From assembly GCA_001778495.1 (NCBI GenBank), contig MFHE01000006.1, positions 1 to 53,086 on the forward strand: 53,086 nucleotides of DNA, read 5' to 3'. Shown here piece after piece: positions 14,943 to 39,202 of the stretch; within the stretch, counting starts at the first letter, position 1; the number at the start of each line of letters is the position of its first letter. The translations under genes and the position numbers were made by a program. The notes below the pieces were generated by a model. The model was not told the origin of the DNA. It did not search any database and saw only the letters and a list, made by a program, of their open reading frames with translations. Source of the DNA: Candidatus Giovannonibacteria bacterium RIFCSPHIGHO2_01_FULL_45_24 (lineage in GTDB: Bacteria > Patescibacteriota > Minisyncoccia > UBA11713 > 2-01-FULL-45-33).

Positions 14943-15476
14943 ATGAATGAGAAAGAAAGAATTTTTATACTAATTGATGGGAATAATTTCTATCATCGTC
15001 TCAAGGAGTTAAAACTTAATAATTTATTGTCGTTTCATTATGAAAAACTGTCTGACTTTCTGACAGGCCAAAGGCTTTTAATATTCAAACATTATTATAT
15101 AGGAGCTATTCGCGAAGAGCAGGGCAACCCGAAAAGTAAAGAATTGATGCGCGGGCAAAGAAAATTGACTAGCATACTTCAAAGAGACGGCTGGATAGTT
15201 AAATTTGGTCATATGCTTAAAACCGATGGTTATCACGAAAAAGGGGTTGATGTTCAAATCGCCGTTGATTTACTGATTGGAGCTTACGAAAATCTTTATG
15301 ATACAGCAATTTTGGTCAGCTCCGATACCGATTTGATTCCCGCATTAGCTAAAGTGCGCTTTATGAAAAAGAAAGTTGAATATATGGGGTTTAGTCATAA
15401 ACCATCTTATGGCTTGATTACACATTCGGATATAAGAAGGCTTTTGACAAAAGAAGATATTAATCAATTTCTATGA
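14943..15476 (+). CDS. Stand-alone NYN-domain (LabA/PIN-like) protein
   Basis: FILIDGNNFYHRL; KGVDVQIAVDLL; AILVSSDTDLIPAL acidic triad motifs. Confidence 0.85.
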   Translation: MNEKERIFILIDGNNFYHRLKELKLNNLLSFHYEKLSDFLTGQRLLIFKHYYIGAIREEQGNPKSKELMRGQRKLTSILQRDGWIVKFGHMLKTDGYHEKGVDVQIAVDLLIGAYENLYDTAILVSSDTDLIPALAKVRFMKKKVEYMGFSHKPSYGLITHSDIRRLLTKEDINQFL

Positions 15477-30865: not shown

Positions 30866-33800
30866 ATGAAAGATTCTCGCGAAATTATCTTAGAAGGAGA
30901 AAGATATATCACGGCTTCCGAGGCCGCGGCTGTTTGCGGTTATACGCGCATCTATGTTGGGCAGCTTTGCCGCGAGGAAAAAATCAAAGGAAAAAAAATC
31001 GGCACCGACTGGGTGGTTTCCGAAAAATCTATTTTGGATTACAAAAAATCCATCTTGCGGACGCAAGAGAAAATGGAGCCGCAAATTATCCTTACAAAGC
31101 AAGCAATCTTTCATACAACAGATGAATGGGATAAGGAGATTTTAGGCGAGCAACAAAAAGCTCCGAAATTTTCTCTGAAGCAATGGTCGCTGGGAGCGGC
31201 TTCTCTCTCGTCAGTGCTGATTGCCGCGCTGATTTTTTATAACGCTGGCGCAATTGGAAGGAGTATTGCGGGCGCGGTTGAAAGTGTTAACGTCTCCGCG
31301 ATGAAAACAGCAGACACTATTTCACAAAACGCATTTGCCATTGCCGATGCAACTGTAAACAATATTGTCTTTGCGAAGGACGGAATAATCAGTGCTGTTG
31401 AAAGTGTTAACGTCTCCGCGAAAAAATTCGCGAACAATGTTTCGAATTTTGGAAATTCTAGTTTGAAGCTTGCGCAAAACGGCAAAAATCGGGTTTCGGA
31501 AACCGCATTTGCTGTCGCGGACGAAATCAACAATAATGTTGTCTTTGCGAAAGAAAAAATCTTTAACCTTGCTTACGCCGCGAGTCAATCGGTTTTAGAT
31601 TTTGGAAGTTCGGGCTTGGGATTTGCTTGGAATTTAGAGCTTGGCGCTCGGGATTTTGCTCAAGACGCCGCAAGGGCAACTTTAGGCAATATCATCTCCG
31701 TGAAAAAACTTACTGCCGAATTTTTTGAGGTTTTCACTTCACCCTCTTCCCCAACTCTCCTTACTAAGGAGGGAGGGTTGGGAGGCGAGGTTAATGTTAA
31801 AGCAGTGCTCGGGAACGTTTTCCAAAGCATCAAAGACCGGGCTTCGCTGGCTCTTGCTTTGCCCGAATTCTCGCTTCCGTCTTTGCCTTTTACTTTGGAG
31901 GACGTCAAATTCTCCATCACCGACCTAAGAGACAGATTTATAAACAACGTCCTCGGCTGGCGGGGATACATAGCGTCTTTGGGGAGCGACCTGAAACTGG
32001 CGGCAAGAGACTTCTTCTCGGTTAAGCCGCCTGAAGTTGCGGAAGCCCCATCTCCCACAACCCCTCCTTCTAAAGGAGGGGAAAATGAAGGCAGCAAAAT
32101 CATAACTTTCGGAGAGGCGACTTCCACACTTCCCCAAAATCCCCTCCTTACCAAGGAGGGGAAAGGGGAGGTTAGAACAGTAATTGAAAAAATTATCTCC
32201 GGCATCTCTCAAGCCGATTTAGACCAGCGCCTCTCTTCTCTCAACCAAGTCATCCTGGCCCAAGTCCAGCTTTCTCTGGCGGCTTTAGAAAAACGGCTTC
32301 CTTCCAATCAAGTCCAAAACCCCGTTGTCTTTCTCACGACTTCAATCCCCGGGCCTTACTCTTCCTCTCCTTCCCAAACCGGCTCCGGCGTTTCTGCTTC
32401 TTTCGGAGATTTTTCCAACGGGATTTCCACCGGCGGCAACTTAAGAGCTTCAGGAAACGTGACTCTCGGGGCTGAAGGCAAAGACGTATCCGTTACTTCC
32501 AATGTTTGGAATATCACTTCAGCGGGAGCGGCATCGGGGCTGACCTCCCTTACCTCTACTTCAATCAACTCCACTTCTTTAACCACGGGGACGCTTACGG
32601 CATCTTCCGGGAACATATCGAGTGGCTTAGCCGCCTCCTCAACCCTTCAGGTTACGGGGGACATGACTCTTTACGGCAATCTCGCTTTCTTCAACCAAGC
32701 CACCACGACCATTCCGGCTTCTTTAATGAATGCCCTGACCTTCGCCACCTCATCGGCTTCAGTCCCTTTTTTCACCTTTGACACAAAAAACTACAGAATC
32801 GGCATAGGAACAACTTCTCCCGGCGCGACTTTTTCGGTAAGCGGGGACATACTTGCCAGCGGAGGGCTTAACGTCTCCGGCGCTTCAATGAACGTAAACG
32901 CCACCACAACTCTCACCGAACAGCTTTTGGTCACAAAAAGCCCGACAGTTTCTCACACTTTCGGCACTTGGGCTGTTGGCGTTGCCAACTCCGCGGTCAC
33001 GGACTCGGTTGTGGTCATCAACCCGGCTTCGGCGGCGGCGGATACCAACCTTTTCGGCGCCGCGGTTGGAGGAGCGGTCCGCTTTCTGGTTGACGCTGAC
33101 GGGGATGTTTTCGCCAACGGGCTAACCACGGTAGGCGGCACGACTTTGGCTTCAACCACCGCCTCCAACTTCACTGTTGAAAATCAATTTACAATGGGAG
33201 ACGCCCCCAATGCCGACAGCCATATTTTTAATGGAAGAATCACTCATTTAGCCACCACTACCGGAGCCGCGTATACAATGTGGAATTCAACCGTTTCGGG
33301 CGACCTTCTGCGCCTTCAGGACGGAGACACCTCTCCCACCACCAGATTCGTTTTCTCGGCCGCGGGGCAAGCCGCTTTTGGAACCACTACTCACTCTGGG
33401 CTCTCGGTGCTCACTATAGGGGCTACCACAACTACCGCTATTCCTCTTACATTAAAAGGAGTCACGAGCCAATCCGCCGACCTTTTCCGCGTCCTCTCCT
33501 CGTCCGACTCCTCGCTTTTCAACGTGACCGGAGCAGGCAATGTCGGCATCGGGACGACGAGTCCGGCGCAGCTTCTGTCGGTTCAGGGGAATAGTTATAT
33601 TTCAGGAACTTCATTTTTCGGAGGGGCGATTACGGCAACCTCAACTCTCGCCATCTCTGGAGCCATCACTTCCACCGCCTCGGGCGCCAACACTTTTCCT
33701 TACGCTTCCACGACTGCTTTAACTGTTTCAGGAACCGCAAGCACTACCAATTTCACGGCTTCCGCCATGACTTCCGGCTCCGTTCTTTTCGCGGGCGCGG

Positions 33801-36800
33801 GAGGACTTTTATCGCAGGACAATTCAAACCTCTTTTGGGATGATACGAATAACAGACTCGGCATCGGGACGACGAGCCCGTGGGGGCTTCTTTCGGTAAA
33901 TCCCAACGGCATCGCCGGTCCCGCGTTCGTGGTCGGCTCTTCAACCAAGTGCGTTACCGGGGACACCAAGCTTAAACGCCGCCGCAAGAGACGCCGCAAA
34001 AACGGCAAAGGCGAGTGGGAAGAGGAAGAATATTTTGAAGATACGCGGATTGATGAGATTAAAGAAGGAGACGAAATCCTCACGCTGGACGAAAAAACCG
34101 GCAAGCTTAAGGTCTCCCGCGTCAACAAACTTATGGATATGGGCGTTAAAGAAATCTACACTCTGACCACCGCCACCGGCAAAAAAATCCGCACCACCGC
34201 TAACCATCCTTATCTTCTCGCGCCGGAATTTCCGAAAGAGCGCGTCGCGATATTCATTGACGGGGCGAATGTAGAAGCAAGTTTGCGGCATATGAGCGCG
34301 AGGATTGACTACCAAGAGCTTCTTTCGGCGTTCGGCGGGAAAGAAGCGGTTTCGCGCGCGGGATTTTATAAAGTTGATTTCCAGCACAAAGGACAAGGCC
34401 AATTCTTTACCCGGCTCAAGAAACTTGGCTATCGGCTTATTACTAAACCCCTTAAAATCATTGAACAGCGCCATCTCGCCGACGAGCATAAGGGAAATTT
34501 TGACGTTGAGATCGCCGTTGACGCCGTAGAGCGCAAAAACGCTTTTGATACTGCGGTGCTCTTCTCCGGCGATTCGGATTTTGCTTATCTTGCCGAGCGG
34601 CTCCAGCAAAATGGTAAACGTTTATTAGTTATTGCTCCTTATCGGGCCACCGGCAGAGAGCTGCGCAAACAGGCGGACGTGTTTTTAAGCCTCGCCGATA
34701 TGCCCTTCGTTGATTTCGGAGCAACTAAAAAAGCCCCGCAAAGGGGGCATCACAACCGGCTTTCACCGGCACTTCCCATCCTAGCGCAGGCGCATCCCTA
34801 TGTCAACGGGGGGGTGTGGACAAAGGTTTCCGAAATTAAGGAAGGGCAGATGATTGCGACTTCCGGCGCGAACGGCAAACCGGTCTTTGAAAGAATTATG
34901 TCAATTGAAAAAACCGCCGCCGAGCAGGTCTACGACATAGAAGTGGAAGGCACGCACAATTTCATCGGCAACGACATCGTGGCGCACAATACCTATCTCA
35001 CTGTAACCAACGGCGGCAACGTCGGCATCGGGACGACAAATCCCGGGGCAAATCTGGATGTAGATGTGCCGTCAGGTCAAGGTACTATAAGATTGAGTGA
35101 TACTAACGTTAATGTTATTAAATTATCGGACGCTTCCAGTGGTGCTACTACAAACGGGATAATATCAGTATATTCAGGTGGAACTGAAAATATCAAATTG
35201 TTTGCTAGTAGTAATGATTCATCTTGGATTAATGCTGGCAACGTCGGCATCGGGACGACGAGTCCGGCGACAAGATTGTCAGTGCAGGGAAATGGTTTGT
35301 TTTCAGGAAACCTTACAATCGCCGGGCTGACCGCTACCGGAACGGCTTCGTTCAATGCTGACGCAAGAACAAGCGGCTCATCGGCCCTTTGGAGTTTTGC
35401 CGGAGGAGCAGACACCGGTCTTACGGCTTCCACCGAGGCCACTGACGCGCAATTCAATCTGGCCAGAACAAAAACCCACGCCAACGGAACAATCACGCTT
35501 CAGCGGGACGCGTTAATCAATGCCGCGACCCATGCTTTCACCAATTTCGCTTCAGGCAACATAACCGACCTCGCGACTCTCGGGATTACCGGAGCTCCTT
35601 TGGCGGGAACTAATGCCACAACCACCAACGCCCATACCATATATCTGGGCGCCTCTGCCCTTAACGCCTCCACCACCAATTCATACGGCCTTACGGTCAA
35701 CGCCAACACGGGAGCGACAAACAATTATGCCGCGGCTTTTCTTGGCGGCAACGTCGGAATAGGGACGACCTCACCTTGGGGGCTTCTTTCCGTAAATCCC
35801 AACGGCATCACCGGCCCGGCGTTCGTGGTCGGGTCTTCAACCCAGTGCGTTACTGGGGACACTCGCCTTCGTCGAAGACGAAGGAAATCCAAAGGCAAAA
35901 GCTCAAATGCCAAATCAAGCTCAAAGTTCAAAATCCAAAAATTGGGAGAAGACGAGGAATTCATCTATGAAGAAGTCGCGATTGTGGATGTCCAGTCCGG
36001 AGACGAAATCGCCTCCTTGGACGAGACAACCGGAAAAATTGTCTGGTCAAAAGTGAGAGCGCTTATGCATATGGGCCGAAAACCGATTATTGAGCTGGAA
36101 ACGGCGCTCGGCAGGAAAATCAGGACAACGGAAAATCATCCTTATTTTGTTCGCGAACGCGCGTCGGAACCGATTCGAGCGGTGGCGTTTATTGATTACG
36201 CGAATATAAAATCATGGCTTATTGATAAAAAGCTGCGGATTGATCTCGATTTGCTCCACAGGGAGCTAAAAACCTCCGGTGTAAAAGAAGTCAGGTTTTA
36301 CTACGGTTCTGACGAGCTGGGCAAAAATACCTCTTTTTTCGCGGCACTGCGCCGAATGGGCTACGCAGTTATCACCAAGCCAGTTCAGTACTTTGCAGTA
36401 CGGCTTTTGGATATTTTACAAAAGTCTCGGAATCGTCGATGGCTTGATGCGCTTTCACAAAATATCCGCGAGACGCTTCTTAAAGAGTCGAGCCAACTTG
36501 ATACTAAAGGCATTCGCTTGTTTGAGCCGAAAGCAAACTTTGACGTTGAGATTGCGGCAGACGCGCTGGAAATGGCTAATTCTTTTGATGCTGTTTTGCT
36601 TTTCTCCGGCGACGGGGATTTTGCGGATCTCGCGCGACGCCTTTCTGCCAAAGGCAAACAGGTAATCGTAATTTCCGGCAGGAAGTTCATGTCAGGGGTT
36701 TTGATGGGCGAAGCGGACGGGTTTGTGTTTATGGAGCAATTGGCAAAAATGATCCCCGGCCTGGTTTCTTCAGGTGAAAAGGCAAAACCTGCCTTGCGGC

Positions 36801-39202
36801 AGGTCTTGAAGAATAGTAACTCTATTGTAGCAAGGCCGCCGTCCTTGTCAAGCGGGGGGGTGTGGACAAAAGTGGCGAAGCTGAAAGAAGGACAGGAAAT
36901 CGCGGTTTTGGGCAAAAACGGGAAGCCGGTATGGGATAAAATTACAAGCATGCGCGAACTTCCTTCCGAGGATGTCTTTGACATAGAAGTTGAAGGCACG
37001 CACAACTTCATCGGCAACGACATCGTGGCGCACAACACCTATCTCACCGTCACCAACGGCGGCAACGTCGGGATAGGGACGACGAGTCCAGCGAGTTTGC
37101 TCTCGGTTCAGGGCAATGCTCTTTTTTCCGGCAACCTTTCTTTGGCTAATCTCACGGCGACCGGAACAGTTAACTTCACCGGCACCGGAGCGACTACTAC
37201 GATTTCGGGCGGGCTGGTCGCGGGTAATAACGCCGCTTTGGTGGTCAACCAAGCGGCGACGGCAAATAGTCTCTATATTACAAATGCGGGCAACGTCGGC
37301 ATAGGGACGGCTGCGCCGAAAACCCTGCTCCATATAAAAGAAGGCGCCGGCACTGGCTTGACGCCGGACAGCTCGACCTGGCTTTTCATAGACTCGGGCA
37401 CGAACAGCGACATAACGCTGGGTTCGCCCAACGGCAATCTTGGCAGAATCCTTTTCGCGGACCCCCAGAACAACGCCATAGGAATAATCTCCTACAACCA
37501 CGCTTTGGATGCAATGACTTTTACAGTCAACAACGCAACAAGGCTGTCAATAGATGCAGCCGGCAACGTCGGCATCGGGACGACGAGTCCAGCGACAACG
37601 CTAAGCGTCGCGGGCAATACTTATCTTGATTCCAATCTCATCACTTATTCTTCCTCCACCGCCGCCAATCTTACTTTTTCCTATCAGAGCTCCGCGACCT
37701 CAACTTTGCCGCAAAGCGTCAACGCTTTCTCTTTCGCCACTTCAACGACCGCGACGCCGATACTTTCAATAAACGGGCTTAACGGCAAAGTCGGCATCGG
37801 GAGAACGGCAGCAGTAGAACTTGATGTAATTGGACATTTTAGAGTTAGTAATGCTGGAGCTACTAGTATCTACATACAAAATACTGCTTCTGCCCAACAA
37901 TGGGATATACAAAATAAAGTAACAACTAGCAATTTAGCATTTCTTAATCAAGCCGGGACAGAGGTTTTGACAATTCTAAATACTAACGGCAACGTTGGGA
38001 TTGGGACGACGAGTCCGCAGACCAAACTGGAAATCGTGAATACTTCTTCCGGCGCAACCGCAGATCAGCTTTTTATTTCAAATCTTGATTCGGCAACCTC
38101 AACCGCGTCGCGTCTGACTTTCAGAGCAAATGACATTACCAATGGAACTTCAACTGCCGCCATCACTTCAATACTCCAGCAGAACTTTAACACCGGAAAA
38201 GGCGACCTTGCGTTCTCCACGCTGCGCTCCGGCGCCCTCACCGAAGCGATGCGCATCACAAACACCGGCAAAGTCGGCATCGCAAGCACGACGCCATGGA
38301 GAACATTCGGTGTTACCGGCACGGTGGGCTTTGACGGGCTTACGGCCGGAGCCGGAGCCGGAGCTCTCTGCCTCTCCGCGAACAAGGAAGTCACATATAG
38401 CGATGGCGCGGCCTGCACGGGTTCTTCGCAACGTTTCAAACACGACATTAATTCGCTTGGCGCCGGAGCGCTTGAAACGGTATTAAGTTTGCGCCCCGTA
38501 TCGTTCCTTTATAATGACGACATTGGAGTTCGGGGAGAACAGGTCGGTTTAATCGCGGAAGAAGTTTTCAGTATTGACCCGCGGCTTGTCACGCTTGACG
38601 CGTCGTCTACGCCAACCAACGTTAAGTACGCGAATTTGACCGCGGTTCTCGCCAAGGCGATACAGGAACTGAACGCGAAAGTAGAAGCTTTGATGGGGGG
38701 CGCCAGCTTGTCGCTTGATGCCAACGGAAAACTGGTTGTAAGTGAGATTGAAACAGGGAAGCTCACCGTCACCGGCCCGCAAGGAATTACGATTTATGAC
38801 AAAAAAGGACAGGCGGGGTGTTTGAGCGTTGAAGACGTGGCGACGGGAGCAATTTCGGTCACGGCGGGCGCTTGCGGGACCGCCACAAATGTTCAAAGCT
38901 CGGTTTTCAACACTTCGACAACTACAACCGACACCATTCCTCCCACCATCACAATTTTGGGCAACAATCCTGCAACGATTGAAGTCGGCGCGAGCTACGC
39001 GGATTTGGGAGTTAGCGTGACCGACAATGTTGACCAGAATCTTGGCTACACTGCCTCGCTTGACGGCGGGCCGGAGCTTTCGCAAGGCGCTGGGCTTTCG
39101 CTGGATACTTCAACTACCACAACACACACAATTTTATACAAAGCCGTTGACCAGGCGGGGAACGTCGAAACGGCCCAAAGAACGGTGGAGGTGGTTGAAT
39201 AA
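30866..39202 (+). CDS. Giant HTH-TM-fibre protein with two inteins, Peptidase_S74 chaperone domain and C-terminal DUF5011-like domain
   Basis: N-terminal YITASEAAAVCGYTRIYVGQLCREEKIKGKKIGTDWVV (excisionase-like HTH); TM LGAASLSSVLIAALIFYNAG; many GNVGIGTTSP repeats; SSQRFKHDINSLG..LRPVSFLYND..GLIAEEV (S74); PTITILGNNPATIEVGASYADLGVSVTDN (DUF5011-like). Confidence 0.88.
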   Translation: MKDSREIILEGERYITASEAAAVCGYTRIYVGQLCREEKIKGKKIGTDWVVSEKSILDYKKSILRTQEKMEPQIILTKQAIFHTTDEWDKEILGEQQKAPKFSLKQWSLGAASLSSVLIAALIFYNAGAIGRSIAGAVESVNVSAMKTADTISQNAFAIADATVNNIVFAKDGIISAVESVNVSAKKFANNVSNFGNSSLKLAQNGKNRVSETAFAVADEINNNVVFAKEKIFNLAYAASQSVLDFGSSGLGFAWNLELGARDFAQDAARATLGNIISVKKLTAEFFEVFTSPSSPTLLTKEGGLGGEVNVKAVLGNVFQSIKDRASLALALPEFSLPSLPFTLEDVKFSITDLRDRFINNVLGWRGYIASLGSDLKLAARDFFSVKPPEVAEAPSPTTPPSKGGENEGSKIITFGEATSTLPQNPLLTKEGKGEVRTVIEKIISGISQADLDQRLSSLNQVILAQVQLSLAALEKRLPSNQVQNPVVFLTTSIPGPYSSSPSQTGSGVSASFGDFSNGISTGGNLRASGNVTLGAEGKDVSVTSNVWNITSAGAASGLTSLTSTSINSTSLTTGTLTASSGNISSGLAASSTLQVTGDMTLYGNLAFFNQATTTIPASLMNALTFATSSASVPFFTFDTKNYRIGIGTTSPGATFSVSGDILASGGLNVSGASMNVNATTTLTEQLLVTKSPTVSHTFGTWAVGVANSAVTDSVVVINPASAAADTNLFGAAVGGAVRFLVDADGDVFANGLTTVGGTTLASTTASNFTVENQFTMGDAPNADSHIFNGRITHLATTTGAAYTMWNSTVSGDLLRLQDGDTSPTTRFVFSAAGQAAFGTTTHSGLSVLTIGATTTTAIPLTLKGVTSQSADLFRVLSSSDSSLFNVTGAGNVGIGTTSPAQLLSVQGNSYISGTSFFGGAITATSTLAISGAITSTASGANTFPYASTTALTVSGTASTTNFTASAMTSGSVLFAGAGGLLSQDNSNLFWDDTNNRLGIGTTSPWGLLSVNPNGIAGPAFVVGSSTKCVTGDTKLKRRRKRRRKNGKGEWEEEEYFEDTRIDEIKEGDEILTLDEKTGKLKVSRVNKLMDMGVKEIYTLTTATGKKIRTTANHPYLLAPEFPKERVAIFIDGANVEASLRHMSARIDYQELLSAFGGKEAVSRAGFYKVDFQHKGQGQFFTRLKKLGYRLITKPLKIIEQRHLADEHKGNFDVEIAVDAVERKNAFDTAVLFSGDSDFAYLAERLQQNGKRLLVIAPYRATGRELRKQADVFLSLADMPFVDFGATKKAPQRGHHNRLSPALPILAQAHPYVNGGVWTKVSEIKEGQMIATSGANGKPVFERIMSIEKTAAEQVYDIEVEGTHNFIGNDIVAHNTYLTVTNGGNVGIGTTNPGANLDVDVPSGQGTIRLSDTNVNVIKLSDASSGATTNGIISVYSGGTENIKLFASSNDSSWINAGNVGIGTTSPATRLSVQGNGLFSGNLTIAGLTATGTASFNADARTSGSSALWSFAGGADTGLTASTEATDAQFNLARTKTHANGTITLQRDALINAATHAFTNFASGNITDLATLGITGAPLAGTNATTTNAHTIYLGASALNASTTNSYGLTVNANTGATNNYAAAFLGGNVGIGTTSPWGLLSVNPNGITGPAFVVGSSTQCVTGDTRLRRRRRKSKGKSSNAKSSSKFKIQKLGEDEEFIYEEVAIVDVQSGDEIASLDETTGKIVWSKVRALMHMGRKPIIELETALGRKIRTTENHPYFVRERASEPIRAVAFIDYANIKSWLIDKKLRIDLDLLHRELKTSGVKEVRFYYGSDELGKNTSFFAALRRMGYAVITKPVQYFAVRLLDILQKSRNRRWLDALSQNIRETLLKESSQLDTKGIRLFEPKANFDVEIAADALEMANSFDAVLLFSGDGDFADLARRLSAKGKQVIVISGRKFMSGVLMGEADGFVFMEQLAKMIPGLVSSGEKAKPALRQVLKNSNSIVARPPSLSSGGVWTKVAKLKEGQEIAVLGKNGKPVWDKITSMRELPSEDVFDIEVEGTHNFIGNDIVAHNTYLTVTNGGNVGIGTTSPASLLSVQGNALFSGNLSLANLTATGTVNFTGTGATTTISGGLVAGNNAALVVNQAATANSLYITNAGNVGIGTAAPKTLLHIKEGAGTGLTPDSSTWLFIDSGTNSDITLGSPNGNLGRILFADPQNNAIGIISYNHALDAMTFTVNNATRLSIDAAGNVGIGTTSPATTLSVAGNTYLDSNLITYSSSTAANLTFSYQSSATSTLPQSVNAFSFATSTTATPILSINGLNGKVGIGRTAAVELDVIGHFRVSNAGATSIYIQNTASAQQWDIQNKVTTSNLAFLNQAGTEVLTILNTNGNVGIGTTSPQTKLEIVNTSSGATADQLFISNLDSATSTASRLTFRANDITNGTSTAAITSILQQNFNTGKGDLAFSTLRSGALTEAMRITNTGKVGIASTTPWRTFGVTGTVGFDGLTAGAGAGALCLSANKEVTYSDGAACTGSSQRFKHDINSLGAGALETVLSLRPVSFLYNDDIGVRGEQVGLIAEEVFSIDPRLVTLDASSTPTNVKYANLTAVLAKAIQELNAKVEALMGGASLSLDANGKLVVSEIETGKLTVTGPQGITIYDKKGQAGCLSVEDVATGAISVTAGACGTATNVQSSVFNTSTTTTDTIPPTITILGNNPATIEVGASYADLGVSVTDNVDQNLGYTASLDGGPELSQGAGLSLDTSTTTTHTILYKAVDQAGNVETAQRTVEVVE
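31757..31771. repeat. In-frame palindrome CTCCTTA-C-TAAGGAG, copy 1 (encodes LLTKEG)
   Basis: 7-bp perfect arms inside the fibre gene. Confidence 0.85.
32061..32081. repeat. In-frame palindrome CCCCTCCTT-CTA-AAGGAGGGG, copy 2
   Basis: 9-bp perfect arms. Confidence 0.9.
32141..32161. repeat. In-frame palindrome CCCCTCCTT-ACC-AAGGAGGGG, copy 3
   Basis: 9-bp perfect arms. Confidence 0.9.
33950..34990 (+). mobile_element. Intein 1 (347 aa): Hint splicing domain with embedded NYN domain
   Basis: Block A CVTGDTKL, block B TTANHPYLL, blocks F/G VYDIEVEGTHNFIGNDIVAHN followed by Thr+1; NYN about 34241..34720 (VAIFIDGANVEAS, GNFDVEIAVDAVE, AVLFSGDSDFAYLAERL). Confidence 0.9.
35846..37036 (+). mobile_element. 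Intein 2 (397 aa): Hint splicing domain with embedded NYN domain
   Basis: Block A CVTGDTRL, block B TTENHPYFV, blocks F/G VFDIEVEGTHNFIGNDIVAHN followed by Thr+1; NYN about 36175..36762 (AVAFIDYANIKSW, ANFDVEIAADALE, AVLLFSGDGDFADLARRL). Confidence 0.9.
36787..36804. repeat. Palindrome ACCTGCC-TTGC-GGCAGGT inside intein 2
   Basis: 7-bp perfect arms, in frame (PALRQV). Confidence 0.85.
38423..38690 (+). other. Peptidase_S74 intramolecular chaperone domain
   Basis: SSQRFKHDINSLGAGALETVLSLRPVSFLYNDDIGVRGEQVGLIAEEVFSIDPRLV. Confidence 0.85.

What the first reader, a model, noticed from the sequence alone, without database searches (positions are those of the whole stretch)
33950..34990. Intein 1: a NYN (PIN-like) nuclease domain replaces the homing endonuclease
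Seen in sequence: an in-frame 347-aa insertion begins Cys (CVTGDTKL) and ends HN|T (DIEVEGTHNFIGNDIVAHN|TYLTV), with block B TTANHPYLL, so it has all canonical class 1 splicing motifs. Between the N- and C-Hint halves sits VAIFIDGANVEAS...GNFDVEIAVDAVE...AVLFSGDSDFAYLAERL, with NYN-family acidic motifs and no LAGLIDADG, HNH or GIY-YIG motif. Established knowledge: large inteins usually carry LAGLIDADG or HNH endonucleases. A NYN/LabA-type RNase-fold insert is not a configuration I know of. Inference: the NYN may be a new homing nuclease, or splicing may release a free RNase or toxin as a by-product of fibre maturation.
Basis: partly seen in the sequence, partly recalled or inferred. Interest (0 to 1): 0.93.

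Follow-up and report, generated by a model that had tools for sequence, protein, structure and literature searches.

The report
Intein carrying a NYN ribonuclease domain
A self-splicing protein insert in a tiny bacterium carries an RNA-cutting (NYN) domain where such inserts usually carry a DNA-cutting one, and relatives of the insert carry other swappable cargoes, including complete toxin-antitoxin gene pairs on the opposite DNA strand.

Summary
Window 33950-34990 encodes a 347-aa class-1 intein, and a second one lies at 35846-37036. Each has a NYN domain between its Hint halves (Pfam NYN 1e-28 and 2e-22). AlphaFold (pLDDT 90, pTM 0.82) matches a DnaB intein and the NYN structure 2qip. It is not a one-off: I recovered 29 NYN inteins, nearly all in CPR-type bacteria. 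The NYN acidic residues are invariant in all 29, and NYN dN/dS is about 0.15. One interrupts the Walker A motif of the only SMC gene found in its genome. Empty sites exist in sister species.

The 'new homing nuclease' reading is not supported. The same Hint shell carries exchangeable cargo: NYN (29 of 84), antisense toxin-antitoxin operons (15), a FEVDQS domain (12), an LPD3-like domain (7), tRNA-like RNAs (6), others (15). Only one, in an unrelated host gene, has LAGLIDADG. Intein NYNs are not one clade (AU p = 0.02), so capture was repeated.

Best reading: a functional intein whose homing endonuclease was replaced by interchangeable selfish or stress-type cargo. Splicing would release a cytoplasmic intein bearing an active RNase; its biological role is inferred, not shown. 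No earlier report was found.

The parts
30866..39202 (+). Host gene: 2778-aa fibre-like surface protein (HTH-like N-terminus, hydrophobic segment, many GIGTTSP repeats, S74 chaperone, Ig-like C-terminus) with two inteins
   Evidence: Open frame; Pfam HTH_17 weak (0.0028), Peptidase_S74 1e-9, Bact_surface_Ig-like 1.6e-10; hydrophobic segment read by eye
33950..34990 (+). Intein 1 (347 aa), class 1: Cys1, T-x-x-H block B, HN end, +1 Thr
   Evidence: AlphaFold and Foldseek
33950..34225 (+). Intein 1 Hint N-half (CVTGDTKL...RTTANHPYLL)
   Evidence: Alignments A1, A5
34241..34699 (+). Intein 1 NYN domain (residues 98-250), clade A; catalytic-type residues D104, N107, D185, D208, D210
   Evidence: Pfam NYN 1.1e-28; residues invariant in 29 of 29; 2qip match
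34808..34990 (+). Intein 1 Hint C-half (GGVWTKV...DIEVEGTHNFIGNDIVAHN)
35846..37036 (+). Intein 2 (397 aa), same shell, at the equivalent extein site of a later repeat
36179..36745 (+). Intein 2 NYN domain, a different clade (D) with a long insertion shared with some stand-alone NYN proteins
   Evidence: Pfam NYN 1.7e-22; NYN tree
36863..37036 (+). Intein 2 Hint C-half
33896..33949 (+). N-extein flank of intein 1 (VNPNGIAGPAFVVGSSTK); uninterrupted GPAFVVGSST-A-TNFIVTNGG in sister species
34991..35035 (+). C-extein flank of intein 1 (TYLTVTNGGNVGIGT)
38423..38590 (+). Peptidase_S74 chaperone domain of the host protein

Best explanation
This is a genuine, splicing-competent (by sequence) class-1 intein in which the homing endonuclease has been replaced by a catalytically intact NYN ribonuclease domain. 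It belongs to an intein family of CPR and a few neighbouring bacteria whose Hint shell is a carrier for exchangeable cargo: NYN RNase, other in-frame domains (FEVDQS, LPD3-like, possibly DUF3800-like), antisense toxin-antitoxin operons, or antisense tRNA-like RNA. Shown: architecture, model, conservation, empty sites, cargo exchange, repeated NYN capture, insertion into SMC. Inferred: after translation the intein splices itself out, leaving an intact host protein and a free cytoplasmic intein of about 39 kDa with an active metal-dependent RNase. Inferred and less certain: the RNase helps keep the element in the lineage (toxin-like maintenance or an anti-invader/stress RNase) rather than cutting DNA for homing. 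Spread and shuffling would then use recombination between the many similar repeats and Hint shells.
For: Hint and NYN by Pfam, NCBIfam, PDB sequences, AlphaFold and Foldseek. 29 NYN inteins with all five NYN polar residues invariant, and T-x-x-H and HN invariant. NYN dN/dS 0.09-0.19 where dS is measurable, 0.13-0.19 for the closer pairs. Empty homologous sites in G003, G004 and G007, same family. A NYN intein splits the Walker A motif GPNGSGK|SN of the only SMC gene found over the Pfam cut-off in that genome, so splicing is presumably required. Same shell, other cargo: antisense DUF433 (9), DUF5615 (8), ParE (4), PemK (1) in the non-NYN inteins, against none in the 65 antisense ORFs of the NYN inteins. 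The sense frame of the 15 TA-bearing cargoes has 0 stops, against 158 and 300 in the other two sense frames. One ORF carries up to four inteins with different cargoes. Intein NYNs are not one clade (AU p 0.020).
Against: No splicing, RNase or expression data exist. No antitoxin or immunity gene for the NYN was identified, which weakens a strict toxin reading. Cargo type is clustered on the shell tree (28 changes against 46 for shuffled labels), so exchange is occasional, and shell support is modest. One NYN intein (L090) has Asn at +1 and may cleave rather than splice. The Walker A site in SMC is the sort of site that homing inteins favour.
Confidence: 0.62

Rival explanations
1. The NYN is a new type of homing endonuclease: a PIN-like-fold enzyme that nicks or cuts the empty extein DNA and so copies the intein into intein-free alleles.
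For: It sits exactly where homing endonucleases sit. Empty sites exist in sister species. NYN is under purifying selection. Sites are alike across genomes (GQ|TY type), and one copy reached the SMC Walker A motif. From general knowledge, the wider PIN-like superfamily includes the DNA nucleases FEN1/XPG.
Against: Cargo that cannot home (antisense TA genes, tRNA-like RNA) sits in the same shell at the same kind of site, so a nuclease is not needed to occupy it. Four NYN clades share the site while one clade (B) uses several sites. The closest folds are the NYN proteins 2qip and MARF1. No DNA-recognition module is visible between NYN and Hint.
Confidence: 0.2
2. A polymorphic-toxin-like system: the fibre carries RNase effector cassettes that the Hint domain frees during export or on contact with other cells.
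For: Hint next to RNase toxins and tail-fibre repeats is a known theme (PMC3482391). The host proteins are surface-fibre-like. Cargo is polymorphic and includes an LPD3-like domain.
Against: Both Hint halves plus a long C-extein are present, so the protein is rejoined, unlike the C-terminal toxin layout of that system. No immunity gene was identified. One copy is in cytoplasmic SMC. Antisense TA genes and RNAs cannot be delivered as part of the fibre.
Confidence: 0.1
3. The intein loop is merely a permissive landing pad: any DNA that keeps the frame open survives there, and NYN has no role for the intein.
For: Cargo is very diverse and includes many sequences without a recognisable domain. Short-cargo forms of the same shell exist (L106, L147, L073).
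Against: The NYN active-site residues are invariant in 29 of 29 and dN/dS is about 0.15. Recognised cargo is enriched in RNase, toxin and TA-type functions.
Confidence: 0.15

Closest known systems
Bacterial class-1 inteins such as Npu/Ssp DnaB inteins (4o1r, 1mi8)
   Same: Cys1, T-x-x-H block B, HN end, +1 Thr/Ser, Hint fold (TMt 0.86 to 4o1r)
   Different: Linker/endonuclease position filled by a NYN domain; fibre host with several inteins per gene
LAGLIDADG/HNH homing-endonuclease inteins (PMC5784728)
   Same: A nuclease domain inserted between Hint halves; patchy distribution with empty sites
   Different: No LAGLIDADG, HNH or GIY-YIG motif; NYN is an RNase-type PIN-like fold; same shell also carries non-nuclease cargo
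Stand-alone NYN/LabA-type nucleases (PF01936; 2qip; MARF1 NYN)
   Same: Fold and acidic residues
   Different: Embedded in an intein, without an own start codon in most
Polymorphic toxins with pretoxin Hint and tail-fibre repeats (PMC3482391)
   Same: Hint, fibre repeats, swappable nuclease domains
   Different: Complete intein with rejoined C-extein, several per protein, antisense TA cargo, also in SMC
Type II TA modules: PIN-DUF433 (PMC2701414), RelE/ParE, MazF/PemK
   Same: Such gene pairs are cargo in sister inteins; NYN and DUF5615 are both PIN-like
   Different: The NYN intein itself has no identified antitoxin gene

Membership tests
Class-1 intein | In-frame insert with nucleophile at position 1, block B T-x-x-H, terminal HN, +1 Cys/Ser/Thr | tested here: met
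   C1, TTANH, HN|T; +1 Asn in one relative (L090)
Class-1 intein | Hint fold made by both halves | tested here: met
   AlphaFold pLDDT 89.8 and match to 4o1r
Class-1 intein | Homologous host sites without the insert | tested here: met
   G003, G004, G007
Class-1 intein | Protein splicing activity | not testable with these tools
   Only indirect: sits in the only SMC Walker A found in one genome
NYN nuclease family (PF01936) | Profile match over the gathering score | tested here: met
   100.9 bits, cut-off 24.2
NYN nuclease family (PF01936) | Conserved acidic active-site residues | tested here: met
   D104, N107, D185, D208, D210 in 29 of 29
NYN nuclease family (PF01936) | RNase activity | not testable with these tools
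   Inferred from the family
Homing-endonuclease intein | Known homing nuclease motif (LAGLIDADG, HNH, GIY-YIG) | tested here: not met
   No match in inteins 1 and 2; 1 LAGLIDADG in 84 inteins of the set
Homing-endonuclease intein | Cleavage of the empty-site DNA | not testable with these tools
   Needs a biochemical assay
Type II toxin-antitoxin module | Adjacent antitoxin gene for the NYN | tested here: not met
   No TA family in 65 antisense ORFs of NYN inteins; in-frame or distant antitoxins not excluded
Polymorphic toxin (Hint-toxin) | Toxin domain C-terminal to a single Hint domain, with immunity gene | tested here: not met
   NYN lies between Hint halves and a long C-extein follows; immunity gene not searched systematically

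The most novel reading that the evidence does not exclude
A family of inteins has given up homing by DNA cutting and persists by carrying addiction-type cargo: complete antisense toxin-antitoxin operons or embedded RNases such as NYN whose release is coupled to protein splicing, so that losing the intein or its proper splicing is punished.
Probability: 0.35. Interest if true: 0.93.

Novelty: new variant of a known kind. Interest (0 to 1): 0.82.

Why it matters
Inteins are usually thought to survive by homing with a DNA endonuclease or by becoming mini-inteins. A family that swaps in RNases, whole toxin-antitoxin operons on the opposite strand, and structured RNAs would be a third way, and would make protein splicing a delivery route for an embedded RNase. 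It also gives a directly testable set of natural, compact, cargo-carrying inteins.

Tried and rejected
Viral contigs: no Hint-NYN in three scans; the three weak hits are other inteins. Phages and plasmids: only Hint pieces or stand-alone NYN. Own start codon for NYN: none consistent. Intact tRNA genes inside cargo: ARAGORN found none in the first seven relatives scanned, but a tRNA-like family with covariation was then found. Structure of the FEVDQS cargo: model pLDDT 82.7; its strand/helix order resembles RNase H-like folds, but the Foldseek list holds only Hint-type matches among the best 50, so the fold is not established. PADLOC: NYN, HEC-09, PDC-M04A and generic HEase matches only, no complete defence system named. 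One search failed because the handle type was wrong. Automatic delimitation mis-cut two of the 84 inteins (L142 second, L152), which are counted as 'other'; a few listed inteins start at a contig edge or are truncated at the N-half.

Full report
Observation. The 2778-aa frame 30866-39202 contains two in-frame inserts, 33950-34990 (347 aa) and 35846-37036 (397 aa). Both match Pfam Intein_splicing and NYN and the C-terminal intein model of NCBIfam. The sequence shows Cys1, TTANHPYLL, and DIEVEGTHNFIGNDIVAHN|T for intein 1. phmmer against PDB sequences gives 2qip (a NYN-type protein) for the centre and DnaB inteins for the two ends. An AlphaFold model built with 29 natural homologues has mean pLDDT 89.8 and pTM 0.82. 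Foldseek returns 2qip (TMt 0.82), NpuDnaB intein 4o1r (TMt 0.86) and MARF1 NYN domains.

Host and site. The host is fibre-like: many GIGTTSP repeats, a Peptidase_S74 chaperone and an Ig-like end. Three genomes of the same family have an uninterrupted sequence such as GPAFVVGSST-A-TNFIVTNGGNVGIGTTSP where the window has GPAFVVGSST[K/Q]-intein-TYLTVTNGGNVGIGTT. These are empty sites.

Relatives. Almost every related genome has a stand-alone NYN protein, but full Hint-NYN-Hint is rare: two of 191 genomes besides the window, and a few of 384 genomes across the phylum. One scan of GTDB genomes gave 78 loci, mostly CPR lineages (Zambryskibacteria, Daviesbacteria, Kerfeldbacteria, Kaiserbacteria, Sungiibacteriota, Taylorbacteria, WWE3), with a few records titled Omnitrophota, Elusimicrobia, Deltaproteobacteria and Nitrospinota. 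Parsing these and earlier loci gave 84 different inteins. Pfam finds NYN in 29 and LAGLIDADG in one; that one is judged from its sequence and unrelated host to be L080. In the 29 NYN inteins D104, N107, D185, D208 and D210 are invariant, as are T82, T83, H86, H346 and N347; C1 is nearly so. NYN dN/dS is 0.09-0.19 where dS is measurable. The domain is therefore kept active by selection, which is unlike a decaying passenger.

A second host. In L087 (Kaiserbacteria) the NYN intein splits SMC inside Walker A...IVGPNGSGK|C...HN|SNVADGFRFV. The flanks match SMC_N positions 1-37 and 38-219. That genome shows no other SMC gene over the cut-off. This argues that the family can move between genes and that splicing works there (inference).

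Exchangeable cargo. The other 55 inteins carry different things. Twelve carry an unassigned FEVDQS domain and seven a SREGW domain; three inteins match LPD3, which I assign to the SREGW group from its sequences (one search gives counts, not members). One (L096) resembles DUF3800 weakly, 0.03. Fifteen carry toxin-antitoxin genes on the antisense strand: DUF433 with DUF5615, ParE/RelE-like with a neighbour, or a PemK/MazF. Two of these toxin assignments (L112, L151) rest on gene layout and similarity to the ParE-type members rather than a Pfam match. PIN-DUF433 pairs are a described TA type (PMC2701414). The control set, 65 antisense ORFs of the NYN inteins, has no TA match. The sense frame of the TA-bearing cargoes has no stop, against 158 and 300 stops in the other two sense frames. 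So two coding strands overlap and the intein frame is preserved. Single ORFs carry up to four inteins with different cargoes.

tRNA-like RNA. Six inteins of the set, and further loci, carry on the antisense strand a 74-nt tRNA-like element. It has a 9-bp acceptor-like helix, a middle stem-loop, a T-arm and no D-arm. Acceptor and T-arm are 100% paired with compensatory changes (covariation score 0.507 against 0.209 shuffled, 0 of 500). One copy matches tmRNA below the gathering score. Strong copies also occur elsewhere in relatives; weaker hits there are probably ordinary tRNAs. Its function is open; a tmRNA-derived acceptor/T-arm module is the simplest description.

Origin of NYN cargo. On a tree of 29 intein and 76 stand-alone NYNs the intein ones fall into four groups, and a single clade is rejected (p-AU 0.020). 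Window inteins 1 and 2 belong to different groups, so intein 2 is not a simple copy of intein 1. On the shell tree the labels need 28 changes, where 5 would be the least possible and shuffled labels need 46. Cargo is thus inherited for a while and exchanged at times. Support on both trees is modest.

Mechanism. Shown: architecture, conservation, empty sites, second host, cargo exchange. Inferred: splicing in the cytoplasm gives mature fibre plus a free intein with RNase activity. The role of that RNase is the weakest step. I prefer a maintenance or defence role to homing, because non-nuclease cargo occupies the same sites and because much recognised cargo is of toxin, RNase or TA type. The absence of a recognisable antitoxin for NYN is the main gap.

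Novelty. Searches of the open-access library found no NYN intein and no natural TA-carrying intein. Toxin-intein papers found there are engineered combinations. Homing in CPR rRNA genes by LAGLIDADG enzymes is described (PMC11270868). Polymorphic toxins combine Hint with tail-fibre repeats (PMC3482391) but with a terminal toxin. Subscription papers and preprints were not searchable, so prior description cannot be excluded.

Noticed in passing
L111:4185-4863, L142:468-1041, L116:773-2147, L154:4351-4996, L144:4336-5083, L117:4333-5140, L121:703-1377, L135:1838-2394, L112:5780-6396, L075:4717-5219, L159:836-1606: Toxin-antitoxin operons encoded antisense inside inteins whose sense frame stays open (DUF433-DUF5615, ParE/RelE-like, PemK).
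   Followed up: partly
L064:3536-3610, L070:3205-3279, L123, L148, L155 (four), L156, L157, L158, L072, L084: Family of 74-nt tRNA-like RNAs lacking a D-arm, several within intein cargo on the antisense strand, also free-standing in other CPR genomes; one copy resembles the tmRNA tRNA-like domain.
   Followed up: partly
L087:3848-7240: NYN intein in the Walker A motif of the only SMC gene found in a Kaiserbacteria genome.
   Followed up: yes
L098:452-1474, L145:4001-5026, L153:3893-4957: Cargo family with motif FEVDQS..RIE and a second conserved acidic motif; strand order suggests RNase H-like, fold not confirmed.
   Followed up: partly
L077:7879-8073, L124:6178-6396, L151:4375-4581, L074:1720-1908: Small antisense ORFs (63-73 aa) with hydrophobic segments inside inteins without other recognisable cargo; possible membrane proteins.
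   Followed up: no
window 14943-15476 and L004: Stand-alone NYN proteins of the same genome; a roughly 175-aa NYN gene is found in nearly all relatives and seems a core gene of the group.
   Followed up: partly
L090:3175-4434: NYN intein with Asn instead of Thr/Ser/Cys at +1; may cleave rather than splice.
   Followed up: no
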